DNA of 64,000 nt from Asanoa ishikariensis (GCF_900107455.1 NZ_FNQB01000002.1:1612001-1676000), one strand, 5' to 3'. Counted from the first letter of the stretch, positions 34,322 to 52,688 are shown. Notes: generated from the sequence alone by a model not told the origin. Numbers and translations are program-made.

Positions 34322-34332
34322 ACCTCCGATGT
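34322..34332. promoter_or_regulatory. ACATCNGATGT-like site A
   Basis: ACCTCCGATGT differs at one position from the dyad ACATCNGATGT. It is the most distal of three such sites upstream of the hydrolase gene at 34490, about 158 bp before its start. Confidence 0.45.
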
Positions 34333-34383: not shown

Positions 34384-34412
34384 TTGACGGCCGAAGACAT
34401 CCAATGTTAAAT
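34384..34412 (+). promoter_or_regulatory. Probable promoter of the glycan locus with internal operator
   Basis: TTGACG (34384-34389) and TTAAAT (34407-34412) are separated by exactly 17 bp. ACATCCAATGT (34397-34407), one base off the dyad ACATCNGATGT, fills the space between them, where a repressor would block RNA polymerase. Downstream, an 8-bp stem (34435-34442 with 34449-34456) may fold in the 5' leader. Confidence 0.55.
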
Positions 34413-34489: not shown

Positions 34490-37400
34490 ATGAAGGTGCG
34501 TTCGCCGAACTGGCGACCAACTCTGCGCGCCAGCGTGCTCCTCCTCGTGCTGACCGGTGGCCTCGTCGTCACCGGGCCGGGTCCCGCTCTCGCGGCACCC
34601 ACCGACGCCGCCTACAACGCGGGCACCGGCGCACTCAACGTCGACTACGCGAACTATCTGTCGAAGCACGACATCGTCTACAACCGGCCCAACACCAACC
34701 CGCTGCACGGCCTGACCGTCGGCAACGGCAAGACCGGCGCGATGGTGTGGAACCAGAACGGCCTGACGGCGCAGGTGTCCGGTGTGGACCTGGCGCAGCA
34801 GTCCACGTACGCGGCCGGCAACCTCAACCTGTTCACCTCGCCGCAGCTCGACAGCGGCTACACCACGTTCCAGCAGCGGCTGTCGCTCTACGACGGCACG
34901 CTCACCACCAAGTACGACAGCAACCGCACGGTGACCGTGCTCGGCGCGCCCAACTCCGAGGTGATGGGCATCCACGTCGAGGACTCGCGGCCCGGCGTGA
35001 CGAGCATCGGGTTGGACCTGTCGCTCTGGGACATGAACACCGTCCAGAACATCGCCGACGTGCCCAACCTGACCACCTGGCGGACCGTCAGCACCTTCGC
35101 GGACTCGACCGGTGTCGGCCTGTCGCGCGGTCAGGCGGACCCCAACAACTTCGGCTACACGTTCGCGGCGACCGTCGAGGGCGCTGCCTACACCTCGCAG
35201 GCCGTCAACGGCACTCGGGTGCGGCTGAACATCACGCCGACGTCGAGCTACACCATCTGGTTCACCGCGGCCAGCCGGGTCAACTCGCCCGGCCAGAACT
35301 CGGTGCAGCAGGCGAAGAACCAGCTCGCCGCCGTCAAGGCCACCGGTTACACCAGCACACTGAACGCGTACAAGAACTGGTGGCATGCCTTCTGGGCCAA
35401 GTCGTTCGTCCAGTACGGCGGCAGCGCCGACAACGACTACCTGGAGAACGCCTACTACCTGTTCACGTACATGATCGCGGCCGGCGGCTACGGCAACTAC
35501 CCGTTGCACTTCATCAACGGGAACTTCCGGGCCACGCAGGACAACTCGAAGTGGTCCAACGGCTACTGGTACTGGAACCAACGCGACGTCTACAACTCGT
35601 TCTACAGCTCGAACCATACGGAGCTGATGCGGACGTTCAACAACCTCTACTCACGGAACTACGCGGCGATCAAGAGCTACACGCAGACGAGGTACGGCTC
35701 CGACTCGCTGTGGGTGCCCGAGACGATGGGCTGGGACGGCAACGCCCGCGGCACCATCAACAGCGACTACGTGAACGACACGTACTCGACGGGCACCGAG
35801 GCCGCCTACAACATGTACCTGTACTACCGGTACACGAACGACACGGCGTACCTCCAGAACGTCGCGTACCCGTATATGCGTGACGCGGCGCGGTTCTACC
35901 AGAACAGGCTGTCCCGCAACGGAGCCCAGTACTACATGGCCAGCTCCAACGCGCACGAGACCTACTGGGACGTGAAGAACGCGCTCACCGACCTGGCCGC
36001 GATCCGGCTCCTCTATCCGCTGACGATCCAGGTGTCCACCCAGCTCGGACTCGACAGTGGACTGCGGGCCGGCTGGCAGGACGTGCTGAACAACCTGGCG
36101 CCGTACCAGATCTCGAACGGTGCCTATCTGCCGCACGACCCGCCGACCTCACCGACGCGCAACGGCGAGAACGTGGCGCTGGAGCTCGTCTGGCCCTACG
36201 ACCAGAGCGGCATCGGCTTCCCCGACACGCAGACGTCCATCAACACCTGGAACGTGCGGCCGCACCCGTACGGCAACGTGTGGGCCAACGACCACGTGCA
36301 CGCCGCCCGGCTCGGCCTCGGGCCCCAGGCACAGTCCGGCATGAAGACGATGCTGCAGAAGTACCAGAACTACCCCAACGGCATGACCAACAACACCAAC
36401 GGGGTGTACGAGTACATCGGCATCCACCTGGCGGCGATGAACGAGTCGCTGATGCAGTCGTACAACGACAAGATCCGGGTGTTCCCCGCGATCCCGTCCG
36501 ACTCCGGCTTCGTCGGCAAGTTCACGCTGCTGGCCAAGGACGGCTTCCTGGTCAGCGCGGAGCGCGAGGCGCAGGAGACCAAGTACGTGGGCATCCGCAG
36601 CCTGCACGGCAAGCAGGCCCGGGTGGTCAACCCGTGGGGCACCCAGCAGATCCGGGTCCGTCGCACCAGTGACAACGCCATCATCACCACGGTCTCGGCG
36701 GCCGAGGTGACGTGGGCGACCGCGGCGAACACGAGCTACGTCGTGGAGCGGGTGGCCAAGCCACTGACGTCCTACTCCGCGACCACGTTGACCGGCACGG
36801 CCAACCAGGGCGCAAAGTCGCTGTCCGGCACCGCCTCCACCTTCGGCCTCGGGCCGGCGGGGCAGGGTGGCCTGGTCAACGACACCGACCTGACCTACGG
36901 CGCGAACTGGTACCACACCACGGCCCGCGGGTACGGCGACTACAACGACGACACCCACCACAGCAACACCGTCAACGCGGAGGCGTCCTACACGTTCAAC
37001 GGCACGGGCGTGGAGTACCTCTCGGAGCGGTTCAGCGACATGGGCAACGTCGACGTCTACCTCGACGGCACGTTCCAGGCCAACGTCAACCTCAACGTGA
37101 CCGGCGCACGCCAGGCGCAACAGGTGGTGTGGAGCCGCACCGGGCTCACCAACGGCCAGCACACGATCCGGATCGTCAACAAGACGACCTCGGTGGGGAT
37201 GATCGACGCGTTGCGGATCCTGACCGGCGGGGGCAGCAACCCGACGGGCGGCACCGCACTGCGGGCGGCGGCCAACAACCTGTACGTGACCGCCGCGGGC
37301 ACCGCACCCCTGATCGCCAGCGCGGCGACGATCGGCGGGTCGGAGCGCTTCGACGTGGTCGACCTCGGCGGTGGCAACGTGGGGCTGCGGTCCCGGGCCA

Positions 37401-37633
37401 ACAACATGTTCGTCTGCGCGGAGAACGCCGGCGCCAACCCGCTGGTCGCGAACCGGGCATCGGCCGGGGCCTGGGAGACGTTCACCCGGGTCAACAACTC
37501 CGACGGCACGATCAGCCTGCGGGCCAACGTCAACACCAAATACGTCGTCGCGGAGAACGGCGGTGCGGGCAACCTCATCGCCAACCGCGACGCGATCGGA
37601 CCGTGGGAGAAGTTCACGCTCGTCGCGGGCTGA
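34490..37633 (+). CDS. Secreted GH95-like (alpha/alpha)6 glycoside hydrolase with CBM-like and fascin-like domains
   Basis: A 1047-residue exported enzyme with a signal peptide ending near A-L-A-A-P (35). Residues 50-260 are a beta-sandwich opening H-G-L-T-V-G-N-G-K-T-G-A-M-V-W, the pattern of GH95/DUF5703-type hydrolases. Residues 290-690 are a six-hairpin catalytic barrel ending M-N-E-S-L-M-Q-S-Y-N-D-K-I-R-V-F-P-A-I-P, which matches GH95 alpha-L-fucosidases. A galactose-binding-like module (about 790-910) and a fascin-like beta-trefoil piece (922-1047) follow. The fucosidase function is inferred from the fold and the L-fuconate dehydratase downstream; other deoxy- or galacto-linkages are possible. 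Catalytic residues were not assigned. Confidence 0.75.
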   Translation: MKVRSPNWRPTLRASVLLLVLTGGLVVTGPGPALAAPTDAAYNAGTGALNVDYANYLSKHDIVYNRPNTNPLHGLTVGNGKTGAMVWNQNGLTAQVSGVDLAQQSTYAAGNLNLFTSPQLDSGYTTFQQRLSLYDGTLTTKYDSNRTVTVLGAPNSEVMGIHVEDSRPGVTSIGLDLSLWDMNTVQNIADVPNLTTWRTVSTFADSTGVGLSRGQADPNNFGYTFAATVEGAAYTSQAVNGTRVRLNITPTSSYTIWFTAASRVNSPGQNSVQQAKNQLAAVKATGYTSTLNAYKNWWHAFWAKSFVQYGGSADNDYLENAYYLFTYMIAAGGYGNYPLHFINGNFRATQDNSKWSNGYWYWNQRDVYNSFYSSNHTELMRTFNNLYSRNYAAIKSYTQTRYGSDSLWVPETMGWDGNARGTINSDYVNDTYSTGTEAAYNMYLYYRYTNDTAYLQNVAYPYMRDAARFYQNRLSRNGAQYYMASSNAHETYWDVKNALTDLAAIRLLYPLTIQVSTQLGLDSGLRAGWQDVLNNLAPYQISNGAYLPHDPPTSPTRNGENVALELVWPYDQSGIGFPDTQTSINTWNVRPHPYGNVWANDHVHAARLGLGPQAQSGMKTMLQKYQNYPNGMTNNTNGVYEYIGIHLAAMNESLMQSYNDKIRVFPAIPSDSGFVGKFTLLAKDGFLVSAEREAQETKYVGIRSLHGKQARVVNPWGTQQIRVRRTSDNAIITTVSAAEVTWATAANTSYVVERVAKPLTSYSATTLTGTANQGAKSLSGTASTFGLGPAGQGGLVNDTDLTYGANWYHTTARGYGDYNDDTHHSNTVNAEASYTFNGTGVEYLSERFSDMGNVDVYLDGTFQANVNLNVTGARQAQQVVWSRTGLTNGQHTIRIVNKTTSVGMIDALRILTGGGSNPTGGTALRAAANNLYVTAAGTAPLIASAATIGGSERFDVVDLGGGNVGLRSRANNMFVCAENAGANPLVANRASAGAWETFTRVNNSDGTISLRANVNTKYVVAENGGAGNLIANRDAIGPWEKFTLVAG
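37253..37633 (+). repeat. Fascin-like module, copy 1 (C-terminus of GH95-like enzyme)
   Basis: It encodes residues 922-1047. Landmarks shared by all three copies are R-F-D-V-V-D-L-G-G-G-N-V, V-C-A-E-N-A-G-A, W-E-T-F and a closing P-W-E-K-F. The nucleotide sequence is also strongly conserved between copies. Confidence 0.8.
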
Positions 37634-37642
37634 ACCCACAGC

Positions 37643-37672
37643 GGGGCCAGGGGAATGGCACACCCTGGCCCC
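37643..37672 (+). terminator. Hairpin terminator after the GH95-like gene
   Basis: A perfect 10-bp G/C stem (GGGGCCAGGG with CCCTGGCCCC) and a 10-nt loop start 9 bp after the stop. There is no U-run, as is common in this G+C range. Confidence 0.7.
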
Positions 37673-37752
37673 GACACCCGTCCCTACCAACCGTTCCAGC
37701 CGGCAGCGGCGGCCCGGCTCCTAGCCAACCCCCACATGAGCGGAGGAGCAGA

Positions 37753-38913
37753 GTGTTGAAACGATTGGTGGCGGCCCTTGCCGGGCTCGCCGTGGTGCTG
37801 GTAGCGGCGCTGTACGCCGCACCGGCGAACGCGGCGCCGGTGACCAAGGTTCTCGTGTTCTCCAAGACGGCCGGTTTCCGGCACTCGTCGATCCCCAACG
37901 GCATCGCGGCGATCCAGCTACTCGGTTCGCAGAACGGCTTCTCGGTGACGGCCACCGAGGACGCCGCCCAGTTCACGACCGCCAACCTGGCGCAGTACCA
38001 GGCGGTGGTCTTCCTCTCCACGACCGGTGACGTGCTGAACGCGACCCAGCAGACCGCGTTCCAGTCGTACATCGCGAGCGGTAAGGGCTACGTGGGCGTG
38101 CACGCCGCCGCCGACACCGAGTACGACTGGGCCTGGTACGGCGGCCTGGTCGGTGCCTACTTCCAGTCGCACCCGGCGATCCAGCAGGCGACCCTGCGGG
38201 TCGAGGACACCACGAACCCGGCGAGCGCGCATCTGCCGGCCAACTGGACTCGGTCGGACGAGTGGTACAACTACCGGACCAACCCGCGGGCCAACGTACG
38301 CGTGCTCGTGCGGCTCGACGAGGCCACCTACAGCGGCGGCTCGATGGGTGACCACCCGATCACCTGGTGCCAGAACTACGGCGGTGGCCGGTCGTTCTAC
38401 ACCGGGCTCGGGCACACCGAGGCGTCGTACACGGAGTCGAACTTCACCCGGATGCTGCTCGGCGCGATCCAGTGGGCCGGCGGCGCGGTCAGCGCGACCT
38501 GCACGCCCGCCACGACGCCGCCGGTGAGCGGCACAGCCGTGCGGGCGGGGGCGAACAACCTGTTCGTCACGGCGGGTTCCGGCAACCTGATCGCCAACGC
38601 GAGCGCGGCGTCCACCAACGCGCAGCGCTTCGACGTGGTCGACCTCGGCGGCGGCAACGTCGCACTGAAGTCGCGCGCCAACGGCATGTACGTCTGCGCG
38701 GAGAACGCCGGCGCCAACCCGTTGGTCGCCAACCGGGCATCGGTCGGTGGCTGGGAGACGTTCGCGCGGGTCAACAACTCCGACGGCACGGTCAGCTTCC
38801 GCGCCCAGGCCAACGGCCGCTACGTGGTGGCCGAGAACGGCGGAGCCGCGGCCCTGATCGCCAACCGCACCACCATCGGCGCCTGGGAGAAGTTCACCCT
38901 CACCACCAGCTGA
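37753..38913 (+). CDS. Secreted ThuA-domain protein with fascin-like C-terminus (ThuA1)
   Basis: A 386-residue exported protein: signal peptide ending A-N-A-A-P (about 28), ThuA domain (30-245) and fascin-like module (261-386). The ThuA core shows L-V-F-S-K-T-A-G-F-R-H-S-S, V-F-L-S-T-T-G-D-V-L, G-V-H-A-A-A-D-T-E-Y-D-W and the G-L-G-H-T-E-A-S-Y end, i.e. the glutamine-amidotransferase-like fold. ThuA proteins are implicated in 3-keto-disaccharide metabolism; their exact chemistry is unsettled. The start is GTG 37753 after GGAGGA. Its catalytic domain is a close duplicate of the one at 41954-44068. A strong hairpin begins one base after its stop. Confidence 0.85.
   Translation: MLKRLVAALAGLAVVLVAALYAAPANAAPVTKVLVFSKTAGFRHSSIPNGIAAIQLLGSQNGFSVTATEDAAQFTTANLAQYQAVVFLSTTGDVLNATQQTAFQSYIASGKGYVGVHAAADTEYDWAWYGGLVGAYFQSHPAIQQATLRVEDTTNPASAHLPANWTRSDEWYNYRTNPRANVRVLVRLDEATYSGGSMGDHPITWCQNYGGGRSFYTGLGHTEASYTESNFTRMLLGAIQWAGGAVSATCTPATTPPVSGTAVRAGANNLFVTAGSGNLIANASAASTNAQRFDVVDLGGGNVALKSRANGMYVCAENAGANPLVANRASVGGWETFARVNNSDGTVSFRAQANGRYVVAENGGAAALIANRTTIGAWEKFTLTTS
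37834..38472 (+). repeat. Duplicated ThuA coding segment, copy 1
   Basis: It encodes the mature ThuA domain of ThuA1 and matches 42032-42676 almost base for base over long stretches, e.g. GGTTCGCAGAACGGCTTCTC in both. Differences are mostly third-position changes, plus divergence in the middle of the domain. Confidence 0.85.
38533..38910 (+). repeat. Fascin-like module, copy 2 (C-terminus of ThuA1)
   Basis: It encodes residues 261-386 of ThuA1. It is closest to copy 1, sharing V-C-A-E-N-A-G-A-N-P-L-V-A-N-R-A-S and the R-V-N-N-S-D-G-T turn. Confidence 0.8.
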
Positions 38914-38961
38914 AGGAAGGGACCCTTGTTATCGCTTTTCGCATAACAAGGGTCCCTTCCT
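38914..38961. terminator. Hairpin terminator/attenuator (copy 2 of a repeated stem)
   Basis: Perfect 19-bp arms at 38914-38932 and 38943-38961 with a 10-nt loop. The stem shares AGGAAGGGACCCTTGT with the hairpin at 29963-30013. It sits between co-oriented genes, 45 bp before the dehydrogenase start, so it may limit read-through within the locus. Confidence 0.8.
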
Positions 38962-39006
38962 AACGCCCTCTGCTCCGTACCCCTACCCAAAATCAGGAGC
39001 ATCCAC

Positions 39007-41877
39007 ATGCGACGTACGTCCCTGCGCCGCAGACCGCGCCTCTTGAGCGCGCTCGGCGCCGCCCTGCTCACTGCGGCCAGCCTGACGGTGCTGACCGTCA
39101 CGCCCACACCGGCGGCTGCCGCGCCGCCCGCGACCAACCTGTTCGAGAAGGTGAAGCTGGACGGCGGCACCTCGATGGGTGAGCCGATCGAGCTCGCCGT
39201 CGCGCCGGACCAGAAGGTCTTCTACATCAACCGGGGCACGTCGTCCGGCGGCGGCCAGGTCCGGCTCTACAACCCCACGACGCGGACCACGACGGTCGCG
39301 CTGACGATCGCGCTGGACGCCCGCTTCGAGGACGGCCTGATCGGCATCACGCTCGACCCCGGCTTCGCCACGAACCGCTGGCTCTACCTGTTCTACTCGC
39401 CCGCCCAGGCGAGCCTGGTCAACCGGATCTCCCGGTTCACCTTCAACGCGACCACGAACGTCATCGACCCGGCGTCCGAGGACATGATCATCGAGTGGCC
39501 CACCGAGCGGCGGCTGTGCTGTCACTCGGCCGGCTCGATGACCTGGGACACCGCCGGCAACCTGTACTTCGCGGTCGGCGACAACACCAACTCCGGTGGC
39601 GACTCGGCCGGCATGGCGCCGATCGACGAGCGCACCAGCCGGGACGCGCAGTACGACGCCCAGCGCACGTCGGGCAACACCAACGACCTGCGCGGCAAGA
39701 TCAACCGGATCAAGCCGACCACCGCCGGCACGTACACGGTGCCGAGCGGCAACCTGTTCGCGGCCGGCACCGCGGGGACCCGGTCCGAGATCTACATCAT
39801 GGGCACCCGCAACCCGTACCGGATCTGGGTCGACAAGAAGGCCAACAACACCCTGTACTGGGGCGAAGTCGGTCCGGACGCGGGCGCGACGGTCGCCAAC
39901 CGGGGTCCGGCGGCCTACGACGAGTTCAACCGGGCCACCGCGCCGGGCAACTACGGCTGGCCCTACTGCGGCGGCCCGAACGTCGCGTACAACGACTGGG
40001 ACTTCGCGGCCAACGCACCGCGCGGCTGGTTCCCCTGCGGTGGCACCACCGGCCCGGTCAACAACTCGCCGCGCAACACCGGCCTCCAGCAGCTTCCGCC
40101 GACCAAGCCGGCGCTGGTCTGGGAGCAGCACGGCGGCAGCAAGGAGTGGCCGGCCCTGGACAGCCCGGGCGGCTGTGGCTCGCCGAACCACACCGAGGTC
40201 TACCACTACGACGCGAACCTGGTCTCGGACGTCAAGTGGCCGGCCTACTACGACAACAAGTGGCTGATCTCCGAGTACTGCCGCAACTGGATCAAGGAGG
40301 TCCAGTTCAACAACGGCAACCCGGTGACCGGCACGCCGACCGTGATCGAGCCGGTGCTGGCCGGGATGCAGCTCGTGCACCCGATCGACATGGAGTTCGG
40401 CCCGGACGGGTCGCTCTATCTGCTCGAGTACGGCAACGGCTACTTCTCCGGTGACGTCGCGGCCGGCCTCTACAAGATCAATTACGTCGCCGGTGGACGC
40501 GCGCCCATCGCCGTCGCCTCCGCCAACCGCGACAACGGTTTGGCGCCGCTCGCCGTCACGTTCTCCAGCGCGGGCAGCACCGACCCCGACGGGGACCCGC
40601 TGACCTACCAGTGGGACTTCGACAACAACGGCACGGTCGACTCGACGGCCGCCAACCCGTCGTTCACCTACACGACCAACGGCGACAAGCGGGCCCGGCT
40701 GACCGTCAACGACGGCACCGGCCGCAGCGGCACCACCCTGCTGCCGATCGTGGTCGGCAACAACCGGCCGACGGTCGCGCTCAACGGCCTGCCGGCCGGC
40801 GGCATGATCTCGTGGGGCGAGAACGTCACCTCCACGGGTACGGCCACGGACCCGCAGGACGGCACCATCCCGTGTGCCAGCGTGGTGATCCGGGCCGCGC
40901 TCGGCCACCAGGAGCACGCGCACGAGGAGGGCCAGGGCACCGGTTGCGGGTTCACCGTCAACACCGGTCCCGTGCACGCCGGCCCCGACTCGACGCTGTT
41001 CTTCGTGCTGCGGTCCAGCTACACCGACCGGGGTGCGACCGGCAGCGTGCCGCTGACCGGGGAGAAGGAGATCACCCTCTGGCCCAAGCAGTGGCAGGCC
41101 GAGCACTACGTCACGCTCAACGGCCCGCAGGTGATCAACGCGTCCGGTGCCGAGGGTGGCAAGCGGCTCGGTGACATCCAGAACGGCGAGTACGTGCGGC
41201 ACCACGCCGTCAGCCTCAAGGGGATCACCCAGCTCCGGACCCGGGTCTCGTCCGGCGGCGCCGGCGGCACGATCTCGTTCCGCTACGACTCGACCACCGG
41301 CACCGAGGTGGCCCGGGTCGCGGTGCCGAGCACCGGTAGCTGGGACACGTACACGGACATCACCGTCCCGGTGAACAAGCCCGACGACAACACCCACGAC
41401 CTCTACATCGTGTTCACCGGTGGCAGCGGGGCGTTCCTCGACCTCGACAGCTACACGTTCGTCGGATCGGGTGTCAGCACGCCGGGCACTGGTGGCCCGC
41501 GTACCGGCGCCATCCGGGCGCTCGGCAAGTGCGCCGACGTGAACGGCGGCGCGACCGCCGACGGCACCAAGGTGCAGATCTGGGACTGCAACGGCGCGAC
41601 CAACCAGAGCTGGACCGTCGGCACCGACGGCACCATCCGCTCGCTCGGCAAGTGCCTCGACGTCCAGTCCAGCGGCACGACCAACGGCACGAAGGTCCAC
41701 CTCTGGACCTGCAACAGCACCGGTGCCCAGCAGTGGGTCACCGCCGCCAACGGCGGCCTGCGCAACCCGCAGGCCAACAAGTGCCTGGACATCCCGGGCT
41801 CGAACGTCACCAACGGCACCCAGCTCCAGATCTACGACTGCAACGGCACCGGCGCCCAGAACTGGACGCTGCCGTAA
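39007..41877 (+). CDS. Secreted PQQ-type sugar dehydrogenase with PKD, CBM6-like and ricin-B domains (GSDH1)
   Basis: A 956-residue exported protein: signal peptide (to about 39), glucose/sorbosone-dehydrogenase six-bladed propeller (45-490), PKD domain (about 500-580), CBM6-like module (about 690-820) and ricin-type beta-trefoil (about 835-956, with repeated Q-x-W motifs). The propeller carries D-P-G-F-A-T-N-R-W, the probable catalytic His173 in C-C-H-S-A-G-S-M, and T-S-G-N-T-N-D-L-R-G-K-I. Relatives oxidise sugars with PQQ as cofactor; PQQ genes are not in this window. Vicinal Cys171-172 precede the His. The lectin and CBM domains suggest binding to polysaccharide. It alternates with ThuA genes. 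Confidence 0.87.
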   Translation: MRRTSLRRRPRLLSALGAALLTAASLTVLTVTPTPAAAAPPATNLFEKVKLDGGTSMGEPIELAVAPDQKVFYINRGTSSGGGQVRLYNPTTRTTTVALTIALDARFEDGLIGITLDPGFATNRWLYLFYSPAQASLVNRISRFTFNATTNVIDPASEDMIIEWPTERRLCCHSAGSMTWDTAGNLYFAVGDNTNSGGDSAGMAPIDERTSRDAQYDAQRTSGNTNDLRGKINRIKPTTAGTYTVPSGNLFAAGTAGTRSEIYIMGTRNPYRIWVDKKANNTLYWGEVGPDAGATVANRGPAAYDEFNRATAPGNYGWPYCGGPNVAYNDWDFAANAPRGWFPCGGTTGPVNNSPRNTGLQQLPPTKPALVWEQHGGSKEWPALDSPGGCGSPNHTEVYHYDANLVSDVKWPAYYDNKWLISEYCRNWIKEVQFNNGNPVTGTPTVIEPVLAGMQLVHPIDMEFGPDGSLYLLEYGNGYFSGDVAAGLYKINYVAGGRAPIAVASANRDNGLAPLAVTFSSAGSTDPDGDPLTYQWDFDNNGTVDSTAANPSFTYTTNGDKRARLTVNDGTGRSGTTLLPIVVGNNRPTVALNGLPAGGMISWGENVTSTGTATDPQDGTIPCASVVIRAALGHQEHAHEEGQGTGCGFTVNTGPVHAGPDSTLFFVLRSSYTDRGATGSVPLTGEKEITLWPKQWQAEHYVTLNGPQVINASGAEGGKRLGDIQNGEYVRHHAVSLKGITQLRTRVSSGGAGGTISFRYDSTTGTEVARVAVPSTGSWDTYTDITVPVNKPDDNTHDLYIVFTGGSGAFLDLDSYTFVGSGVSTPGTGGPRTGAIRALGKCADVNGGATADGTKVQIWDCNGATNQSWTVGTDGTIRSLGKCLDVQSSGTTNGTKVHLWTCNSTGAQQWVTAANGGLRNPQANKCLDIPGSNVTNGTQLQIYDCNGTGAQNWTLP

Positions 41878-41893
41878 GGCCGGAGCGCTAGCC

Positions 41894-41931
41894 GCGCGGG
41901 GTCCGGTCGCGCCGACGGCCGGGCCCCGCGC
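41894..41931 (+). terminator. Hairpin terminator after GSDH1
   Basis: A 13-bp stem with one G-T pair (41894-41906 with 41919-41931) lies 17 bp after the stop and before the RBS of the next gene. Confidence 0.65.
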
Positions 41932-41953
41932 CCCCTACCCATTAGGAGTAAGC

Positions 41954-46911: not shown

Positions 46912-46929
46912 CTCGCGGATAGATTGGAT

Positions 46930-46955
46930 GAATCGCCTCGGCAACGGGGCGATTC
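46930..46955 (+). terminator. Intrinsic terminator after GSDH2
   Basis: GAATCGCCTCG pairs with CGGGGCGATTC (one T-G pair) around a GCAA tetraloop, followed by TTCCTTTG. This is the most canonical terminator in the window, and it separates the secreted block from the fuconate dehydratase operon. Confidence 0.85.
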
Positions 46956-46978
46956 TTCCTTTGTGGAGATCGAAGGTC

Positions 46979-47015
46979 TTGCCATACATCCGACCACCTG
47001 GTAAACATCGGATCT
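46979..47015 (+). promoter_or_regulatory. Probable promoter of the fuconate dehydratase-ABC operon with ACATCNGATGT-like sites
   Basis: TTGCCA (46979-46984) and TAAACA (47002-47007) are 17 bp apart. ACATCGGATCT (47005-47015), one base off ACATCNGATGT, overlaps the -10, and a half-site ACATCCGA (46986-46993) lies in the spacer. ATCCGA and TCGGAT also form an inverted repeat around the promoter. Confidence 0.5.
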
Positions 47016-47038
47016 ATGAATGCGCGTGAGGATCGTCG

Positions 47039-48346
47039 ATGACCGCCCGCTTCGTGTCACTGGACACCTACGACGTGCGGTTCCCGACCTCGCGTGAGCT
47101 CGACGGCTCCGACGCGATGAACCCGGACCCGGACTACTCGGCGGCCTACGTGGTCCTGCGGACCGACGAGGTCGACGGGAACGAGGGCCACGGGTTCGCG
47201 TTCACCATCGGGCGCGGCAACGAGGTGCAGACCGCGGCGATCGCCGCGCTGCGGCCCTACCTGGCCGGCCGCCTGGTCAAGAACGTCCTCGACGACATGG
47301 GCGCGTTCTGGCGCGAGCTGGTGCACGACTCGCAGCTTCGGTGGCTCGGTCCGGAGAAGGGCGTCATGCACATGGCCATCTCGGCCGTGGTCAACGCCCT
47401 GTGGGACCTCAAGGCCAAGCAGGCGGGGCTGCCGCTGTGGCAACTGCTCTCCTCGATGCCGCCGGAGGAGCTGGTCTCCCTGGTCGACTTCCGCTACCTG
47501 ACCGACGCGCTCACGCCGGGGGAGGCGCTCGAGCTGCTCCAGCCCGGCGCCGCCGGCCGCGAGGAGCGGGTCGCCGAGCTGTTGGCGCACGGCTACCCGG
47601 CCTACGCCACCTCACCGGGCTGGCTCGGCTACGAGGACGCCAAGCTGCGCCGGCTGTGCCAGGAGGCCCTCGACGCGGGCTTCACGCAGATCAAGCTGAA
47701 GGTCGGCGCGGACCTGGCCGACGACATCCGCCGGCTGCGGATCGCCCGCGAGGTGTGCGGCCCGGACATCCGGATCGCGGTCGACGCGAACCAGCGCTGG
47801 GACGTCGGCCAAGCGATCGAGTGGGTCGGTGAGTTGGCGCCGTTCGACCCGTGGTGGGTCGAGGAGCCGACCAGCCCGGACGACGTGGTCGGCCACGCCG
47901 CGATCGCCCGCGGCATCGCGCCGATTCCCGTGGCGACCGGCGAGCACGTGCAGAACCGCGTCGTGTTCAAGCAGCTCCTCCAGCTCGGCGCGGTGTCCTA
48001 TGTGCAGCTCGACGCCGCCCGGGTGGCCGGCGTCAACGAGAACATCGCGATCCTGTTGCTGGCGGCCAAGTTCGGCGTGCCCGTCTGCCCGCACGCGGGC
48101 GGCGTCGGCCTCTGCGAGCTGGTGCAGCACCTCTCCCTCTTCGACTACGTCGCGGTGTCCCGCTCGATGGACAACCGCGTCATCGAGTACGTCGACCATC
48201 TCCACGAGCACTTTCTCGATCCCGTGCAGATCCGCGCCGGTCGTTACCTGGCACCTCAGGCACCCGGCTTCAGCTCGACCATGCGTCCCGAAAGCCGGGC
48301 CCGGTTCGCCTTCCCCGACGGGCCGGCCTGGTCACGCACCGTCTGA
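47039..48346 (+). CDS. L-fuconate dehydratase (enolase superfamily)
   Basis: A 435-residue enolase-superfamily enzyme converting L-fuconate to 2-keto-3-deoxy-L-fuconate. The full active site is visible: Lys219 and Lys221 in I-K-L-K-V, metal ligands Asp249 (V-D-A-N-Q-R-W), Glu275 (V-E-E-P-T-S-P-D-D) and Glu302 (G-E-H-V-Q-N-R), and base His352 ([11 protein letters not shown]). Spacing is within one residue of the characterised Xanthomonas FucD as I recall it, and length fits. It heads an operon with the sugar ABC importer and GntR regulator. The fucose dehydrogenase, lactonase and later steps are not in the window and must lie elsewhere. Confidence 0.92.
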
Positions 48347-48382
48347 CCCCCGCAACACCCCTACCCACCACAGAGGACTGCG

Positions 48383-49447
48383 ATGATCCTGAACAGACGC
48401 GCCGTCGTCAGCGTGGCGGTCGTTGCCGCTTTCGCCGCGGCGACCGCTGGTTGCAACTCGTCCGACACCGGCTCCACCGGCGGCAGCGGCACCGACGCCG
48501 GCGCCGCCAAGCCGCCGATCGCGGTCGACCTGCCCCGGGCCGACTCCGACTTCTGGAACTCGTACGCCAAGTACATCCCGGAGTACGCGAAGGAAAGCGA
48601 CATCAACCTGATGACGCCGACCAACTCGCAGAACGACATCGCCAAGCTGGTCGCCAACGCGCAGGCCGTCACCGCGCAGGGTGCCAAGGCGATCGTGATG
48701 GCGCCGCAGGACACGGGCGCCATCGCCAGCACGCTCACCATGCTGGAGAGCAAGAAGATCCCGGTGGTCTCCGTCGACACCCGGCCCGACAAGGGCAAGG
48801 TCTTCATGGTGGTGCGGGCCGACAACCGCGCCTACGGCCAGAAGGCGTGCGAGTTCCTCGGCGAGAAGCTCGGCGGCAAGGGCAAGGTCATCGAGTTCCA
48901 GGGCTCGCTCTCGTCGGTCAACGGACGGGACCGGTCCGAGGCGTTCGCCGAGTGCATGAAGACGAAGTTCCCCGACATCACCATCTTCGAGGAGCCGACC
49001 GAGTGGGAAGGCCCGAAGGCGGCCGCCGCGCTGCAGACCCGGCTCGCCCAGCACCCTGACCTCAAGGGCGTCTACATGCAGGCCGGTGGCGTGTTCCTGG
49101 CGCCGACGCTGCAGGTGCTCAAATCGAAGAACCTGCTGGTGCCGCCGACCGACCCGAAGCACATCTTCATCGTCTCCAACGACGGCATCCCGCAGGAGTT
49201 CGAGGCGATCCGCAAGGGCGAGATCGACGCCACCGTCTCGCAGCCCGCGGACCTCTACGCCAAGTACGCGCTGTTCTACGCCAAGGCCGCGGTCGAGGGA
49301 AAGACCTTCACCCCTGGACCTACGGACCACGACAGCACCATCATCGACGTCGGCAACGGCGTGCTCGAAGACCAGCTTCCGGCGCCGCTCGTGACGAAGG
49401 ACAACGTCGACGACGCGTCGTTGTGGGGCAACCAGATCGGGAAGTGA
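48383..49447 (+). CDS. Sugar ABC transporter substrate-binding lipoprotein
   Basis: A 354-residue binding protein of the periplasmic-binding-protein type I (RbsB-like) class. The lipobox is A-T-A-G-C with Cys at 24, followed by a Ser/Gly/Thr-rich tether. The core shows N-D-I-A-K-L-V-A-N-A-Q-A-V, A-I-V-M-A-P-Q-D-T, P-V-V-S-V-D-T-R and V-S-N-D-G-I-P-Q-E. It should capture the monosaccharide, probably L-fucose or fuconate by context, for import. The stop overlaps the ATPase start by one base (TGATG). Confidence 0.92.
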   Translation: MILNRRAVVSVAVVAAFAAATAGCNSSDTGSTGGSGTDAGAAKPPIAVDLPRADSDFWNSYAKYIPEYAKESDINLMTPTNSQNDIAKLVANAQAVTAQGAKAIVMAPQDTGAIASTLTMLESKKIPVVSVDTRPDKGKVFMVVRADNRAYGQKACEFLGEKLGGKGKVIEFQGSLSSVNGRDRSEAFAECMKTKFPDITIFEEPTEWEGPKAAAALQTRLAQHPDLKGVYMQAGGVFLAPTLQVLKSKNLLVPPTDPKHIFIVSNDGIPQEFEAIRKGEIDATVSQPADLYAKYALFYAKAAVEGKTFTPGPTDHDSTIIDVGNGVLEDQLPAPLVTKDNVDDASLWGNQIGK

Positions 49448-50985
49448 TGACCGACGTACTGACCGACGCGGCCGGGGGTGGGGCTGCCGCCCCGCACCCG
49501 GCCGTCTCGGCCCACGAGATAACCAAACGCTTCGGCGCGACCACGGCGCTGTCCGAGGTGAGCGTGGCGATCCAGGCCGGCACGACCCACGCCCTGGTGG
49601 GACGCAACGGCGCGGGCAAGTCGACGCTGGTCTCGGTGCTCACCGGGCTGCACCGGGCCGACGAGGGCACCGTCTCCTTCGGCGACTCACCGGCACCGGC
49701 CCCGTCCGACCGGGACGGGTGGCGACGGCACGTCGCCTGTGTGTACCAGCGTTCGACCATCATCCCGGCGCTGTCGGTGGCGGAGAACCTGTTCCTGAAC
49801 CGGCAGGCCGCCGGCGGCCTGATCAAGTGGGGCGGCCTGCGTAAGCGGGCCGGCGCGCTGCTCGAGGAATACGGCGTCGACGTCGACCCGGGCGCGCTCG
49901 CCGGTGACCTCAACGTGGAGCAACGCCAACTCGTCGAGATCGCCCGGGCGCTGTCCCTCGGCACCCGGTTCATCATCCTCGACGAGCCGACCGCGCGTCT
50001 GGACGCGACCGCGATCGAGCGGTTGTTCGGCCGGATGCGCACGCTGGCCGCGGCCGGCGTCACCATGCTGTTCATCTCGCACCACCTGCGCGAGGTCTAC
50101 GAGGTCTGCGACACCGTCACCGTGCTGCGCGACGCCCGCTGGGTGCTCACGGAGCCAGTCTCGGCGGTCAGCCACGACGCGCTGGTGGCCGCGATGACGG
50201 GCGAGGCGGTCGGGCTCACCGAGGTCGCGCCGCGTTCGGTGCCCGACGCGCCGCCGGTGCTCTCGTTGCGCTCGCTGACGCTGGCCGACGCGTACACGGA
50301 GATCGATCTTGATATCCGGCCCGGCGAGATGGTTGGCGTGACCGGCTCCGGCAGCAGCGGCAAGGTGTCGCTGGCGGAGACGGTCGGCGGGTTGCGGCGC
50401 GCGGACAGCGGCACGGTCAGCGTCGGCGGGGCCGCGGTCGGCTCGGGTGTGCCTTTGGCTTTGAAGGCCGGCATCGGGCTCGTTCCCGAGGACCGGCACC
50501 GCGAAGGGCTCGTGCCCCTGTTGTCGGTCGCGGAGAACGCGACCCTGCCGATCGGCGACCGGCTCGGGCCGGCGGGTGTCGTCGTGCCGCGCCGGCGGAC
50601 CAGCGTGGCCGAGGAGATGATCCGGCGGTACGACATCCGCACCGAGAGCGCGGCGGCCCCGGTCGCCAGCCTCTCCGGTGGCAACGCGCAGAAGGTCGTG
50701 CTGGCCCGCGCGCTGTCCACCGACCCGCGGGTGCTGGTGCTGATCAACCCCACCGCCGGCGTCGACGTGCGCTCCAAGGAGTCGCTGCTCGGTGCCGTGC
50801 GCTCGGCGGCCGACCAGGGCACGGGCGTGCTGATGGTCTCCGACGAGCTCGACGACCTGCGCCACTGCGATCGGGTGCTGGTCATGTTCCACGGCCGGGT
50901 GACGGCCACGCTCTCCCGAGGCTGGGATGACGCGCAGGTGGTCGCGGCAGTCGAGGGTGTTTCTTCCGAAGGAGCTTCGTCATGA
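49447..50985 (+). CDS. Sugar ABC transporter ATP-binding protein (RbsA/MglA type, two domains)
   Basis: A 512-residue protein with two ATPase domains. Domain 1 has Walker A G-R-N-G-A-G-K-S-T, a divergent signature L-N-V-E-Q-R-Q and Walker B I-I-L-D-E-P-T. Domain 2 has a degenerate Walker A (G-S-G-S-S-G-K-V-S), signature L-S-G-G-N-A-Q-K and a Walker B lacking the catalytic acid (V-L-I-N-P-T-A-G-V-D). One working and one degenerate site is normal for RbsA-type importers. It is coupled to the binding protein (TGATG) and to the permease (4-bp overlap). Confidence 0.93.
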   Translation: MTDVLTDAAGGGAAAPHPAVSAHEITKRFGATTALSEVSVAIQAGTTHALVGRNGAGKSTLVSVLTGLHRADEGTVSFGDSPAPAPSDRDGWRRHVACVYQRSTIIPALSVAENLFLNRQAAGGLIKWGGLRKRAGALLEEYGVDVDPGALAGDLNVEQRQLVEIARALSLGTRFIILDEPTARLDATAIERLFGRMRTLAAAGVTMLFISHHLREVYEVCDTVTVLRDARWVLTEPVSAVSHDALVAAMTGEAVGLTEVAPRSVPDAPPVLSLRSLTLADAYTEIDLDIRPGEMVGVTGSGSSGKVSLAETVGGLRRADSGTVSVGGAAVGSGVPLALKAGIGLVPEDRHREGLVPLLSVAENATLPIGDRLGPAGVVVPRRRTSVAEEMIRRYDIRTESAAAPVASLSGGNAQKVVLARALSTDPRVLVLINPTAGVDVRSKESLLGAVRSAADQGTGVLMVSDELDDLRHCDRVLVMFHGRVTATLSRGWDDAQVVAAVEGVSSEGASS

Positions 50986-52007
50986 CCGGGACTACGACAG
51001 CGCCGGTTTCACCGCCGGAGGCGCCGGTCAGGCGGCGGCTGACCGGGCCGCGGCTGGCGCGGATGCGGGACCTGGCGCTCGTACCCGCGATCATCGTGCT
51101 GGTCCTGGTCGGTGCGCTCATCGATCCGGTGTTCCTGAGCAGCGCCAACATCACCAACGTGCTGCAACAGCAGACCGAGCTGTCGCTGCTGGTGCTGGCC
51201 GAGGCGATCATCCTGATCGGTGGCCGGTTCGACCTCTCGCTGGAGTCGACCGTCGGCCTCGCGCCGGCGCTGGCTGTGGCGCTGGTCATCCCGGCCGCCA
51301 GCAACGGGATCGGCACCGAATGGGCCACGGCCCTGGCGATCCCGATCTGCCTGCTCGTCGGCGTGGCCATCGGCGCGTTCAACGGGCTGCTGATCCTGCG
51401 TTTCGGGCTGTCGGCGTTCATCGTCACGCTCGGCATGCTGATCGTGCTGCGCGGCCTCCAGATCGGCATCACCGGCGGGCAGAACCTGTTCGAGCTGCCG
51501 ATGTCGGTGCTCTACCTGGGCAACGCGGTCTGGCTCGGCCTGCCGGCCTCGATCTGGATCTGCGGGATCCTGTTCGCGATCGGCATCGCGGTACTCGGTT
51601 TCTTCCGGCACGGGCGCGCTGTGTACGCCATCGGCGGCAACCGGGACGCGGCGCGCGCGGCGGGCATCCGGGTGGACCGGGTGATGTGGATCGTGTTCAT
51701 CGTCGGCGGCCTGCTCGCGGCGCTGGCCGGCCTGCTGATGACCGGGCGGCTCGGCTCGGTCGCGGCGGCGCAGGGCGACGGCATGATCTTCACGGTGTTC
51801 GCGGCGGCCGTGATCGGCGGGGTCAGCATGGAGGGCGGCAAGGGCACGCTGTTCGGCGCGCTCTGCGGCGTCATCGTGCTCGGCCTGATCAACAACATCC
51901 TCACGCTCGCCGGCGTCTCGGCACAGTGGATCCAGGCCATCTACGGCCTGATCATCCTGGTGGCACTGATGCTCGCCCGGTTGACGACAGGCAAAGCCCA
52001 GGACTGA
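50982..52007 (+). CDS. Sugar ABC transporter permease (RbsC type)
   Basis: A 341-residue inner-membrane permease with about nine hydrophobic helices after a cytoplasmic Pro/Arg-rich head. RbsC-family marks are G-G-R-F-D-L-S-L-E-S-T-V-G-L-A in the second third of the membrane part, F-I-V-T-L-G-M-L-I-V-L-R-G, the coupling region Y-A-I-G-G-N-R-D-A-A-R-A-A-G-I, and G-G-V-S-M-E-G-G-K-G-T. A single permease gene indicates a homodimer. It is coupled to the ATPase by ATGA; the GntR gene starts 9 bp downstream. Confidence 0.93.
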   Translation: MTGTTTAPVSPPEAPVRRRLTGPRLARMRDLALVPAIIVLVLVGALIDPVFLSSANITNVLQQQTELSLLVLAEAIILIGGRFDLSLESTVGLAPALAVALVIPAASNGIGTEWATALAIPICLLVGVAIGAFNGLLILRFGLSAFIVTLGMLIVLRGLQIGITGGQNLFELPMSVLYLGNAVWLGLPASIWICGILFAIGIAVLGFFRHGRAVYAIGGNRDAARAAGIRVDRVMWIVFIVGGLLAALAGLLMTGRLGSVAAAQGDGMIFTVFAAAVIGGVSMEGGKGTLFGALCGVIVLGLINNILTLAGVSAQWIQAIYGLIILVALMLARLTTGKAQD

Positions 52008-52016
52008 GGTGACGGC

Positions 52017-52688
52017 GTGGCGTTGACCGACGAAGCGATCGACAAGATCAAGGAGATGATCGTCTCCGGGGCACTCGGCCCCGGGGACCGGCTCCCCAAG
52101 GAGGCGGATCTCGCCGAGCGGCTCGGGCTGTCCCGCAACTCGTTGCGCGAGGCGGTCAAGGCGCTGTCCATCATCAAGATTCTCGACGTGCGGCAGGGAG
52201 ACGGCACGTACGTCACGAGCCTGTCGCCCGACCTGCTCCTCGAGTCGCTGAGCTTCGTCGTCGACTTCCACCGCGACGACACCGTGCTCCAGTTCCTCGA
52301 GGTGCGCCGCATCCTGGAGCCGGCGGCGACGGCGCTGGCGTCTCTGCGGATGCTTCCCGGGGACGTCGCCAAGCTGCAACGGACGCTCGACGAGCTCGGC
52401 GCGTCGCCGTCGGTGGAGGCGCTGGTCGCGAACGACCTCGAGTTCCACCGCGCGATCGCGGCCGGGTCCGGCAACGCGGCGCTCTGCTCGCTGATCGACG
52501 GGCTCTCCGGGCCGACCACGCGGGCCCGGATCTGGCGCGGGCTCACCCAGGAGGGCGCGGTCGACAAGACGCGCGAGCAGCACCAGGCGATCGTCGACGC
52601 GATCGCGGCCCACGAGCCCGACCTGGCCCGCTCGTGGGCGACGGTGCACATCGCGGGTGTGGAGGAGTGGCTACGACAGGCGCTCTGA
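52017..52688 (+). CDS. FadR-subfamily GntR transcriptional regulator
   Basis: A 223-residue regulator: winged helix at 8-72 (I-V-S-G-A-L-G-P-G-D-R-L-P-K-E-A-D-L-A and L-S-R-N-S-L-R-E-A-V) and an all-helical FCD ligand domain (about 90-220) with the metal-ligand pattern D-L-E-F-H-R-A-I-A, H-Q-A-I-V-D-A-I and V-H-I-A-G-V. It is the last gene of the fuconate dehydratase-ABC operon, so its ligand is probably a fucose catabolite. The ACATCNGATGT-like sites at 34322-34407 and 46986-47015 are its candidate targets. The start is GTG 52017. Confidence 0.92.
   Translation: MALTDEAIDKIKEMIVSGALGPGDRLPKEADLAERLGLSRNSLREAVKALSIIKILDVRQGDGTYVTSLSPDLLLESLSFVVDFHRDDTVLQFLEVRRILEPAATALASLRMLPGDVAKLQRTLDELGASPSVEALVANDLEFHRAIAAGSGNAALCSLIDGLSGPTTRARIWRGLTQEGAVDKTREQHQAIVDAIAAHEPDLARSWATVHIAGVEEWLRQAL

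What the first reader, a model, noticed from the sequence alone, without database searches (positions are those of the whole stretch)
34490..52688. Candidate extracellular 'oxidise and cleave' system for a fucosylated glycan
Seen: a secreted GH95-like hydrolase, two ThuA proteins, two PQQ-type sugar dehydrogenases, a DUF1080 domain, a complete L-fuconate dehydratase active site, a sugar ABC importer and a FadR-type regulator lie in one co-oriented 18-kb run. Known: DUF1080 enzymes cleave 3-keto-glycosides, ThuA proteins are implicated in keto-disaccharide metabolism, and fuconate dehydratase belongs to the non-phosphorylating fucose route. Inference: sugars are oxidised by the dehydrogenases outside the cell, the keto-glycosides are cleaved by ThuA-DUF1080, the GH95-like enzyme releases fucose directly, and the products are imported and degraded. 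I do not know of a described secreted keto-glycoside route combined with fucose catabolism.
Basis: partly seen in the sequence, partly recalled or inferred. Interest (0 to 1): 0.8.

Follow-up and report, generated by a model that had tools for sequence, protein, structure and literature searches.

The report
Fucose-scavenging gene cluster with secreted enzymes
A soil actinobacterium carries a cluster that very probably cuts the sugar fucose off complex glycans outside the cell and takes it up and degrades it inside, and the same cluster carries a set of secreted sugar-oxidising proteins whose real job is still unknown.

Summary
In detail: five signal-peptide proteins (GH95/GH139-like hydrolase, ThuA, GSDH, ThuA-DUF1080, GSDH), then fuconate dehydratase, sugar ABC importer and FCD-GntR regulator, all co-oriented at 34490-52688.

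The fucose half is well supported. The hydrolase folds like GH95/GH139 L-fucosidases and keeps their catalytic Asn and Glu. A fuconate dehydratase lies within 20 kb of 16 of 52 orthologues (5 of 12 genera; about 0.6 expected). A palindrome, ACATCSGATGT, precedes many hydrolase genes and fuconate operons; in a held-out set, 16 of 18 fuconate-dehydratase genes away from the hydrolase carry it (at most 1 mismatch) within 1.5 kb upstream.

The "oxidise and cleave" half is not shown. 71 of 80 related GSDH loci lack a close hydrolase and are poor in this operator. GSDH-fold enzymes are known to oxidise C1, not C3. PQQ genes were not detected (weak controls). A terminator-like hairpin separates the secreted genes from the fuconate operon. 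CBM92-like modules point to beta-glucan-rich (perhaps fungal) material.

Best reading: a fucose regulon with a new-looking fucosidase that has recruited a generic secreted oxidative module. New variant of a known kind.

The parts
34322..34332 (.). operator-like site ACCTCCGATGT (1 mismatch to ACATCSGATGT), 5' of the hydrolase gene
   Evidence: the same site precedes GH95-like orthologues in other genera
34397..34407 (.). second operator-like site ACATCCAATGT, 82 bp before the hydrolase start codon
34490..37633 (+). secreted GH95/GH139-like hydrolase (DUF5703_N + GH95_cat) with C-terminal CBM92-like trefoil; predicted catalytic N363 (base), E490 (acid), also W598 and E641
37753..38913 (+). secreted ThuA domain protein with CBM92-like trefoil (WExF at 334 and 378)
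38914..38961 (.). perfect 19-nt inverted repeat between ThuA1 and GSDH1 (hairpin, no T run)
39007..41877 (+). secreted GSDH (PQQ aldose dehydrogenase-like) - PKD - CBM6 - ricin B lectin
41954..44068 (+). secreted ThuA - DUF1080 (PF06439) - two F5/8C modules (closest solved: glucanase/chitosanase modules, e.g. 2rv9)
44065..46911 (+). secreted GSDH - PKD - CBM6 - CBM92-like; H187, R281, N282 align to sGDH H144, R228, N229
46930..46955 (+). terminator-like hairpin (11 pairs, then TTCCTTT) between the secreted block and the fuconate operon
   Evidence: a like hairpin is visible in L151, L154 and L155 at the same place
46983..47018 (.). operator-like inverted pair CATACATCCGA ... TCGGATCTATG just before fuconate dehydratase
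47039..48346 (+). L-fuconate dehydratase (enolase superfamily)
48383..49447 (+). periplasmic-type sugar-binding protein of the ABC importer
49423..50985 (+). sugar ABC ATPase (two ABC_tran domains)
50982..52007 (+). sugar ABC permease (BPD_transp_2)
52017..52688 (+). GntR/FCD regulator, 79% identical to the one in the genome's second fuconate locus

Best explanation
The 18-kb run is a fucose-scavenging regulon. A secreted enzyme of the GH95/GH139 structural group, held on beta-glucan-containing material by a CBM92-like module, releases terminal L-fucose (or a fucosyl derivative). The RbsABC-type importer takes the product up. It is channelled into the non-phosphorylating fucose route, of which the window encodes the fuconate dehydratase; a second locus in the same genome has another dehydratase, a fuconolactonase-like protein and two SDRs. 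The FCD-GntR regulator controls both the hydrolase gene and the fuconate operon through the palindrome ACATCSGATGT, with a pathway intermediate as inducer. The two ThuA and two GSDH proteins between them form a generic secreted 'sugar dehydrogenase plus ThuA' module, recruited here and probably read from the hydrolase promoter; they probably process oxidised or reducing sugar ends on the same material. Shown by computation: gene content, fold, catalytic-residue conservation, synteny, operator conservation. Inferred: fucosidase activity, which regulator binds the palindrome, inducer, transport substrate, co-transcription, and everything about the ThuA-GSDH chemistry.
For: Fold: the hydrolase model (pLDDT 82, pTM 0.85) matches 2rdy (a putative glycoside hydrolase) at 3.1e-30, GH139 2-O-methylfucosidase 9hyq at 3.5e-29, GH139 9hmb at 6.2e-29 and GH95 enzymes such as 4ufc, 7kmq and 7znz and the 1,2-alpha-L-fucosidase 2eae. 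A profile of 29 relatives finds 9hmb (158 bits) and 9hyq (122) before alpha-L-fucosidase 8zbv (85) and GH95 7kmq (82). Residues: the acid Glu is invariant in 29 of 29 rows and the base Asn is listed as at least 90% conserved; mapping and PMC12282258. Synteny: a fuconate dehydratase within 20 kb of 16 of 52 GH95-like orthologues, 5 of 12 genera, always on the downstream side, about 0.6 expected. In 6 of 51 fetched loci the hydrolase sits with the dehydratase or its binding protein without any ThuA or GSDH. Among 80 GSDH2 loci (the best 80 of 578 relatives), a fuconate dehydratase of at least 55% identity is in 4 of 9 with the hydrolase and 1 of 71 without, Fisher p = 3.8e-4, loci taken as independent. 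Operator: at most 1 mismatch within 300 bp upstream of 30 of 54 hydrolase genes, 8 of 16 fuconate dehydratase genes and 8 of 19 binding-protein genes (shuffle means 0.03, 0.05, 0.07), and of 0 of 35 GSDH2, 0 of 27 GSDH1, 0 of 45 ThuA (L047 and L065 are second copies of L195 and L172, and without them the first three counts are 28 of 52, 8 of 15 and 6 of 17). Held-out: 18 fuconate dehydratase genes not within 20 kb of a hydrolase and not used: 7 of 18 within 320 bp (shuffle mean 0.04) and 16 of 18 within 1500 bp, 12 exact, hits in all 7 genera of that set; at the own-genome rate about 0.1 would be expected in 1500 bp (my arithmetic; no shuffle was run for 1500 bp). The operator also precedes 14 of 32 hydrolase genes with no fuconate operon nearby (9 of 24 if the 8 loci already displayed are set aside). 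Second locus: fuconate dehydratase 83% identical, SDRs, a protein whose only NCBIfam match is L-fucono-1,5-lactonase (202.7 bits, below the 400 cut-off) and a 79% identical GntR.
Against: 36 of 52 hydrolase orthologues have no fuconate dehydratase within 20 kb. All 11 hydrolase loci of genus g17 lack the operator (best hit 3 or more mismatches), though 3 of them have a 64-65% identical dehydratase 15.7 kb downstream. In the window's own genus, 3 of the 5 other dehydratase upstream regions reach the consensus only with 2 mismatches. The motif was first seen by eye in the sequences. In the own genome it has 44 places at 1 mismatch or less (reversed control 6), of which only 5 lie at the two fuconate loci and one more in the window at 31925; of 23 such places in 20 fetched regions, 14 lie inside called genes. 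Three of the 18 held-out genes lie 26-43 kb from a hydrolase. The hydrolase has neither the full GH95 nor the full GH139 active-site set. No dehydrogenase or lactonase was seen in the window's operon. No activity or expression data exist here.
Confidence: 0.65

Rival explanations
1. One reading: the GSDH proteins oxidise glycans outside the cell to keto-glycosides, ThuA-DUF1080 cleaves these, and the GH95-like enzyme adds direct fucose release.
For: ThuA and GSDH are a real pair: 10 of 15 ThuA genes of this genome lie within 5 kb of a GSDH domain, several in one reading frame. Another ThuA is fused to a galactose-oxidase-like domain, so ThuA goes with two unrelated oxidising enzyme types. DUF1080 proteins include a 3-ketotrehalose hydrolase and a proposed 3'-ketolactose hydrolase (PMC9007349, passages seen).
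Against: The closest solved relatives of the GSDH domain are soluble aldose dehydrogenases, which oxidise C1 (established knowledge). In PMC9007349 the keto sugar is made by a LacABC-type dehydrogenase; none was seen among the 17 window frames scanned, and the genome was not searched for it. DUF1080 was found in 37 of 80 GSDH2 loci, ThuA in 71. The 71 loci without a close hydrolase are poor in the fucose operator.
Confidence: 0.13
2. Extracellular C1 route: the secreted GSDH oxidises freed L-fucose (or fucosyl oligosaccharides) to fuconolactone/fuconate outside the cell; the ABC importer takes up L-fuconate, which meets the dehydratase directly, as in periplasmic glucose oxidation of pseudomonads.
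For: The window operon is importer, dehydratase and regulator, with no fucose dehydrogenase seen. Catalytic H, R and N of sGDH are invariant in 30 of 30 rows. A fungal GSDH-fold enzyme, TrAA12, prefers L-fucose (PMC6881810, passages), and AA12 has been proposed to stand in for fucose dehydrogenase in fungi (PMC10481521, passages).
Against: Four hydrolase-linked operons without any GSDH also show no SDR (L187, L190, L198, L199), so the lack is not specific to GSDH loci. The genome has a second locus that can supply the missing steps. AA12 structures are only distant matches (best E 1e-9). No PQQ gene passed a cut-off.
Confidence: 0.12
3. The ThuA-GSDH block is a bystander: a generic secreted module that happens to sit between the hydrolase and the fuconate operon and has no part in fucose use.
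For: 71 of the 80 GSDH2 loci have no close hydrolase, and ThuA is found in 63 of those 71 (two of them, L062 and L068, have a hydrolase of 26-27% identity beside GSDH). 14 of 51 hydrolase loci have no ThuA or GSDH. The block has no operator of its own. Inverted repeats separate the hydrolase, ThuA1 and GSDH1.
Against: 33 of 51 hydrolase loci have GSDH and 36 of 51 ThuA, in the listings mostly downstream of the hydrolase and in its direction. The same CBM92-like module ends the hydrolase, ThuA1 and GSDH2, which suggests a common target.
Confidence: 0.25
4. The pathway serves a different L-fuco-configured sugar (L-galactose, 2-O-methyl-L-fucose) rather than L-fucose.
For: GH95 includes L-galactosidases (PMC12282258 abstract) and the nearest solved relatives by profile are GH139 structures, one a 2-O-methylfucosidase. 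Fuconate dehydratases are known to be promiscuous (recalled).
Against: The lactonase-like protein of the second locus matches only the L-fucono-1,5-lactonase model (below cut-off); the dehydratase is closest to L-fuconate dehydratase structures.
Confidence: 0.15

Closest known systems
GH139 (BT0984, a 2-O-methyl-alpha-L-fucosidase, PDB 9hyq; 9hmb)
   Same: DUF5703 annotation, overall fold, catalytic Glu and base Asn, -1 subsite Trp by alignment (PMC12282258)
   Different: Trp instead of Gln before the base Asn; Glu at the place of N729; no aligned D723; 17-18% identity over the fold
GH95 alpha-L-fucosidases/L-galactosidases (AfcA, Xac1774, BACOVA_03438)
   Same: fold (E down to 2e-27 for entries titled GH95), acid Glu and base Asn positions (PMC12282258)
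   Different: sequence profile weaker than to GH139 (82 bits or less for entries named GH95, 85 for 8zbv); Glu where the activating Asp is expected; Trp instead of the first Asn
Non-phosphorylating L-fucose (fuconate) pathway, e.g. fuconate dehydratase 1yey
   Same: fuconate dehydratase match of 654 bits; lactonase-like protein and SDRs in a second locus
   Different: here the window copy is tied to an ABC importer, a secreted hydrolase and a ThuA-GSDH block
DUF1080-dependent 3-keto-glycoside hydrolysis (C. crescentus CCNA_01705 with LacABC; BT2157)
   Same: a secreted DUF1080 domain (PMC9007349 passages)
   Different: DUF1080 is fused to ThuA and F5/8C modules; the neighbouring dehydrogenases are GSDH, not LacABC
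AA12 / soluble PQQ glucose dehydrogenase fold
   Same: fold match and catalytic H, R, N
   Different: PKD, CBM6 and lectin modules attached; no cytochrome domain among the Pfam matches; AA12 only at E 1e-9
CBM92 (beta-1,6-glucan binding)
   Same: two WExF motifs each in the hydrolase, ThuA1 and GSDH2 (motif from PMC11039641 passages)
   Different: the first of the three sites lacks Trp; hydrolases of this type, ThuA and GSDH are not among the attached enzymes named in the passages read (GH99, found in relatives here, is)

Membership tests
GH95 | GH95 catalytic-domain profile | tested here: met
   PF22124 35.6 bits, cut-off 27; the C-terminal model PF21307 misses its cut-off by 0.1 bit
GH95 | acid Glu (AfcA E566) and base Asn (N423) | tested here: met
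   window E490 and N363, read off the GH139 9hyq alignment and the AfcA equivalences in PMC12282258; E invariant 29 of 29
GH95 | second Asn (N421) and activating Asp (D766) | tested here: not met
   W362 and E641 at these places by my reading of the 9hyq and 7kmq alignments; that the aligned Asp of 7kmq is the D766 equivalent is inferred
GH139 | closest profile relatives are GH139 | tested here: met
   9hmb 158 bits, 9hyq 122 bits, ahead of the GH95 entries
GH139 | Q411, D723 and N729 around the catalytic pair (BT0984) | tested here: not met
   W362 for Q411, E641 for N729, no aligned D723 (PMC12282258). Filed as unclassified relative, not as GH139 member
L-fuconate dehydratase | full-length match to characterised enzyme and conserved active-site motifs | tested here: met
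   1yey 1.1e-195 over residues 5-432; [19 protein letters not shown] and PHAGG identical in the printed alignment; their catalytic role is recalled
L-fuconate dehydratase | activity on L-fuconate | not testable with these tools
   needs enzyme assay
PQQ-dependent soluble aldose dehydrogenase (GSDH) | sGDH-like fold with H144, R228, N229 equivalents | tested here: met
   invariant in 30 of 30 rows
PQQ-dependent soluble aldose dehydrogenase (GSDH) | PQQ available to the organism | tested here: inconclusive
   PqqE below cut-off, PqqC no hit; no control genome passed either cut-off, and PQQ may come from the medium
3-keto-glycoside hydrolase (DUF1080) | PF06439 domain | tested here: met
   134.4 bits, cut-off 26.8
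3-keto-glycoside hydrolase (DUF1080) | partner glycoside 3-dehydrogenase (LacABC or GMC type) | tested here: inconclusive
   none among the 17 window frames scanned; the genome was not searched for it
CBM92 | beta-trefoil with WExF motifs | tested here: met
   DUF7910 matches, PDB 7zoh match at 3.4e-14 for the hydrolase, two WExF each in three proteins; binding not tested
FCD-type GntR regulator of fuconate genes | GntR and FCD domains, gene next to the target operon, shared operator | tested here: met
   the pairing of this regulator with this palindrome is inferred

The most novel reading that the evidence does not exclude
The hydrolase founds a fucosidase family of its own, between GH95 and GH139 with a mixed active site. 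The ThuA-sugar-oxidase pair (GSDH here, a galactose-oxidase-like domain elsewhere in the genome) is a general extracellular oxidative glycan-processing module of actinobacteria, which has been plugged into a fucose regulon. Fucosylated, beta-glucan-rich (possibly fungal) material would then be attacked by hydrolysis and oxidation together.
Probability: 0.25. Interest if true: 0.75.

Novelty: new variant of a known kind. Interest (0 to 1): 0.5.

Why it matters
It gives a testable assignment for an unclassified secreted enzyme (predicted L-fucosidase), a predicted operator and regulator for fucose catabolism in Micromonosporaceae, and a defined place to test what ThuA does. ThuA proteins are common (16 matches, counted by me as 15 genes, in this genome), and no experimental account of this secreted ThuA-GSDH pair stood out in the listings of my searches of the held library. 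If the ThuA-GSDH module proves to act on oxidised glycans, it would extend the keto-sugar route known from Caulobacter and Bacteroides to the surface of mycelial soil bacteria.

Tried and rejected
Classical FCD operator patterns (TNGTNNNACNA and variants) gave no site in the two promoter regions. The consensus promoter scan found 0. PQQ genes: PqqE below cut-off, PqqC none, but no control genome passed a cut-off, so no conclusion. A GH99-type gene, clustered by sequence in 26 of the 68 related loci given to (two pairs are the same genome; one member, L013, was scanned with Pfam), was not found in the own genome, again without a ringing control. I considered that the lack of a fucose dehydrogenase in the operon proves extracellular oxidation; loci without GSDH lack it too, so this was dropped. 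The third fuconate-dehydratase-like gene of the genome (58% identical) sits with pectate lyases and a UxaC homologue and was not used as evidence for fucose. An exact operator-like site at C5:101119 lies just downstream of a ThuA gene and was not counted as regulon evidence. One search's counts for unlinked dehydratase genes had the wrong orientation for minus-strand loci and are replaced; its hydrolase counts stand.

Rows dropped or limited before counts: one partial hydrolase match (G017:C6, 83 residues) and the matches below 65% identity were left out of the 52. In one search only the 29 fuconate-dehydratase loci returned were used (11 linked, 18 not), not all 255 genomes with a match. The listing is cut, best first; the 14 full-length matches stand at its top. 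The two genome collections overlap (some contig lengths agree; for instance L047 and L195, L065 and L172, L013 and L182, L039 and L185 are the same genomes), so the counts and are not independent.

Full report
WHAT IS THERE. The window lies in a 9.09-Mb genome (G000:C4:1612001-1676000). The GSDH2 domain is 97% identical to that of Asanoa iriomotensis, so I take the organism to be an Asanoa-like Micromonosporaceae (inference). From 34490 to 52688 there are ten co-oriented genes: a GH95-like hydrolase, ThuA-CBM92-like, GSDH-PKD-CBM6-ricin B, ThuA-DUF1080-F5/8C2, GSDH-PKD-CBM6-CBM92-like, L-fuconate dehydratase, binding protein, double ATPase, permease and GntR/FCD regulator. A Pyr_redox_2 (NDH-2-like, my name) gene is divergent upstream, and a small gene without Pfam match and a multicopper oxidase gene follow downstream.

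THE HYDROLASE. Pfam gives DUF5703_N and GH95_cat somewhat over cut-off (36 against 26.7 bits, 35.6 against 27). The best solved relatives by profile are the two GH139 structures (158 and 122 bits), then alpha-L-fucosidase 8zbv (85) and GH95 enzymes (82 and less). The predicted model (pLDDT 82) matches 2rdy, a putative glycoside hydrolase, and GH139 9hyq and 9hmb almost equally, then entries titled GH95. From the alignments and the residue roles given in PMC12282258 (abstract and found passages read), the acid is E490, the base N363 and the stacking Trp W598. E641 takes the place of AfcA D766 / BT0984 N729, and W362 that of N421 / Q411 (my reading). The acid is invariant in 29 of 29 rows. So the enzyme looks competent but belongs cleanly to neither family.

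LINKAGE. Of 300 genomes of the family, 59 have a hydrolase match at 1e-10; 52 places reach 65% identity over nearly the whole query. A fuconate dehydratase (E up to 1e-120) lies within 20 kb of 16 of these 52, in 5 of 12 genera, always on the downstream side; about 0.6 would be expected with even spacing in 9-Mb genomes. 36 of 52 have none within 20 kb. In G106, G121 and G095 the order is simply hydrolase, dehydratase, importer, with no ThuA or GSDH. In G160 the hydrolase precedes a different fuconate cluster with a lactonase homologue (58%) and an SDR (64%). In G261 a hydrolase of only 28% identity stands back to back with an importer-dehydratase-regulator operon. Among 80 GSDH2-centred loci of named Actinomycetota (best 80 of 578), 4 of 9 with the hydrolase and 1 of 71 without carry the dehydratase. 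The exception, a Nonomuraea (L052), has a gene with a GH141 insertion domain (30.5 bits, cut-off 27) next to its GSDH and ThuA genes; GH141 is listed among families with fucosidase activity in PMC10154630 (abstract start seen in the listing).

OPERATOR. Upstream regions of hydrolase and dehydratase genes share ACATCSGATGT (by eye). With at most one mismatch it lies within 300 bp of 30 of 54 hydrolase genes, 8 of 16 dehydratase genes and 8 of 19 binding-protein genes, but of 0 of 35, 27 and 45 GSDH2, GSDH1 and ThuA genes (a few loci are second copies of the same genome, see Best explanation). All 11 hydrolase genes of genus g17 lack it. Because the motif came from part of these sequences, I used 18 dehydratase genes that are not within 20 kb of a hydrolase and were not as a held-out set: 7 of 18 within 320 bp and 16 of 18 within 1500 bp, 12 of them exact, with hits in 7 of 7 genera. 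15 of those 18 operons continue with SDRb. Genome-wide the one-mismatch pattern is not specific: 44 places, 5 of them at the two fuconate loci, and 14 of 23 examined others inside called genes. It is the position, not the pattern alone, that carries the evidence.

THE SECRETED OXIDATIVE BLOCK. The GSDH2 model (pLDDT 80) matches soluble PQQ aldose dehydrogenases (3a9g 1.5e-20, sGDH 1c9u 1.9e-19) and, weakly, AA12. H, R and N of the sGDH active site are conserved. ThuA and GSDH go together: 10 of 15 ThuA genes of this genome are within 5 kb of a GSDH domain, and 71 of 80 GSDH2 loci have ThuA. A further ThuA is fused to a galactose-oxidase-like domain, with full-length relatives in 14 of 150 family genomes. 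The block is thus a real module, but it is not fucose-specific: in the 71 loci without a close hydrolase the density of the one-mismatch operator is 13.9 per Mb against 67.8 in the 9 with it. Whether it makes keto-glycosides is open. The known members of the GSDH class act at C1 (established knowledge), and the DUF1080 system described in PMC9007349 (passages) uses a LacABC dehydrogenase.

SUBSTRATE HINTS. The hydrolase, ThuA1 and GSDH2 end in DUF7910 domains with two WExF motifs each. That motif is typical of CBM92, whose tested members prefer beta-1,6-glucan (PMC11039641, abstract and passages). The F5/8C modules of ThuA2 are closest to glucanase/chitosanase modules. In 26 of 68 related loci a GH99-like gene is also present (one member checked with Pfam); GH99 is among the enzymes PMC11039641 lists with CBM92. 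PMC10481521 (passages) reports 12-25% fucose in the wall carbohydrates of some Mucoromycotina. A fungal, fucose- and mannose-bearing wall is therefore my guess for the target, against brown-algal fucoidan; this is inference only.

TRANSCRIPTION. An 11-pair hairpin followed by TTCCTTT lies at 46930-46955, with an operator pair just after it (46983-47018). So the secreted block and the fuconate operon are best seen as two units under one regulator. Inverted repeats also separate the hydrolase, ThuA1 and GSDH1.

LIMITS. No experiment and no CAZy assignment were possible. Family-level counts include related genomes, and the number of genera is the safer figure. Literature was searched only in the held open-access library, mostly as listings; I found no description of this cluster there, which does not show that none exists.

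Noticed in passing
L226:2550-6962 (G000:C5, near 96831): A 1470-aa protein joins ThuA to a galactose/glyoxal-oxidase-like domain and laminin-G domains; full-length relatives in 14 of 150 family genomes.
   Followed up: partly
L089:5901-13953 (G000:C2): Second fuconate locus: cytochrome bd oxidase genes divergent from a fuconate dehydratase, SDR, lactonase-like gene and GntR, with an exact ACATCGGATGT at 8435.
   Followed up: partly
L090:8024-19583 (G000:C4): A third fuconate-dehydratase-like gene (58%) beside UxaC, a mannitol dehydrogenase homologue and pectate lyases, some with weak DUF1080 matches.
   Followed up: no
window:38914-38961: A perfect 19-nt inverted repeat between ThuA1 and GSDH1.
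   Followed up: no
window:14180-14276: ARAGORN reports a tRNA with an odd four-base anticodon (gtcg) and no amino acid; probably a false call.
   Followed up: no
window:53246-54814: Multicopper oxidase gene shortly downstream of the cluster, co-oriented; whether it could take electrons from the GSDH proteins is unknown.
   Followed up: no
G000:C5:376742-378847 and G000:C2:2836378-2838033: Two distant GH95-like genes (28-29%) in the same genome, the first about 7 kb from a GH43-ricin B gene.
   Followed up: no
L131-L133 and L136-L150: 15 of these 18 fuconate dehydratase genes away from the hydrolase have an SDR (SDRb, 73-80%) directly after the dehydratase, which the window operon lacks.
   Followed up: partly
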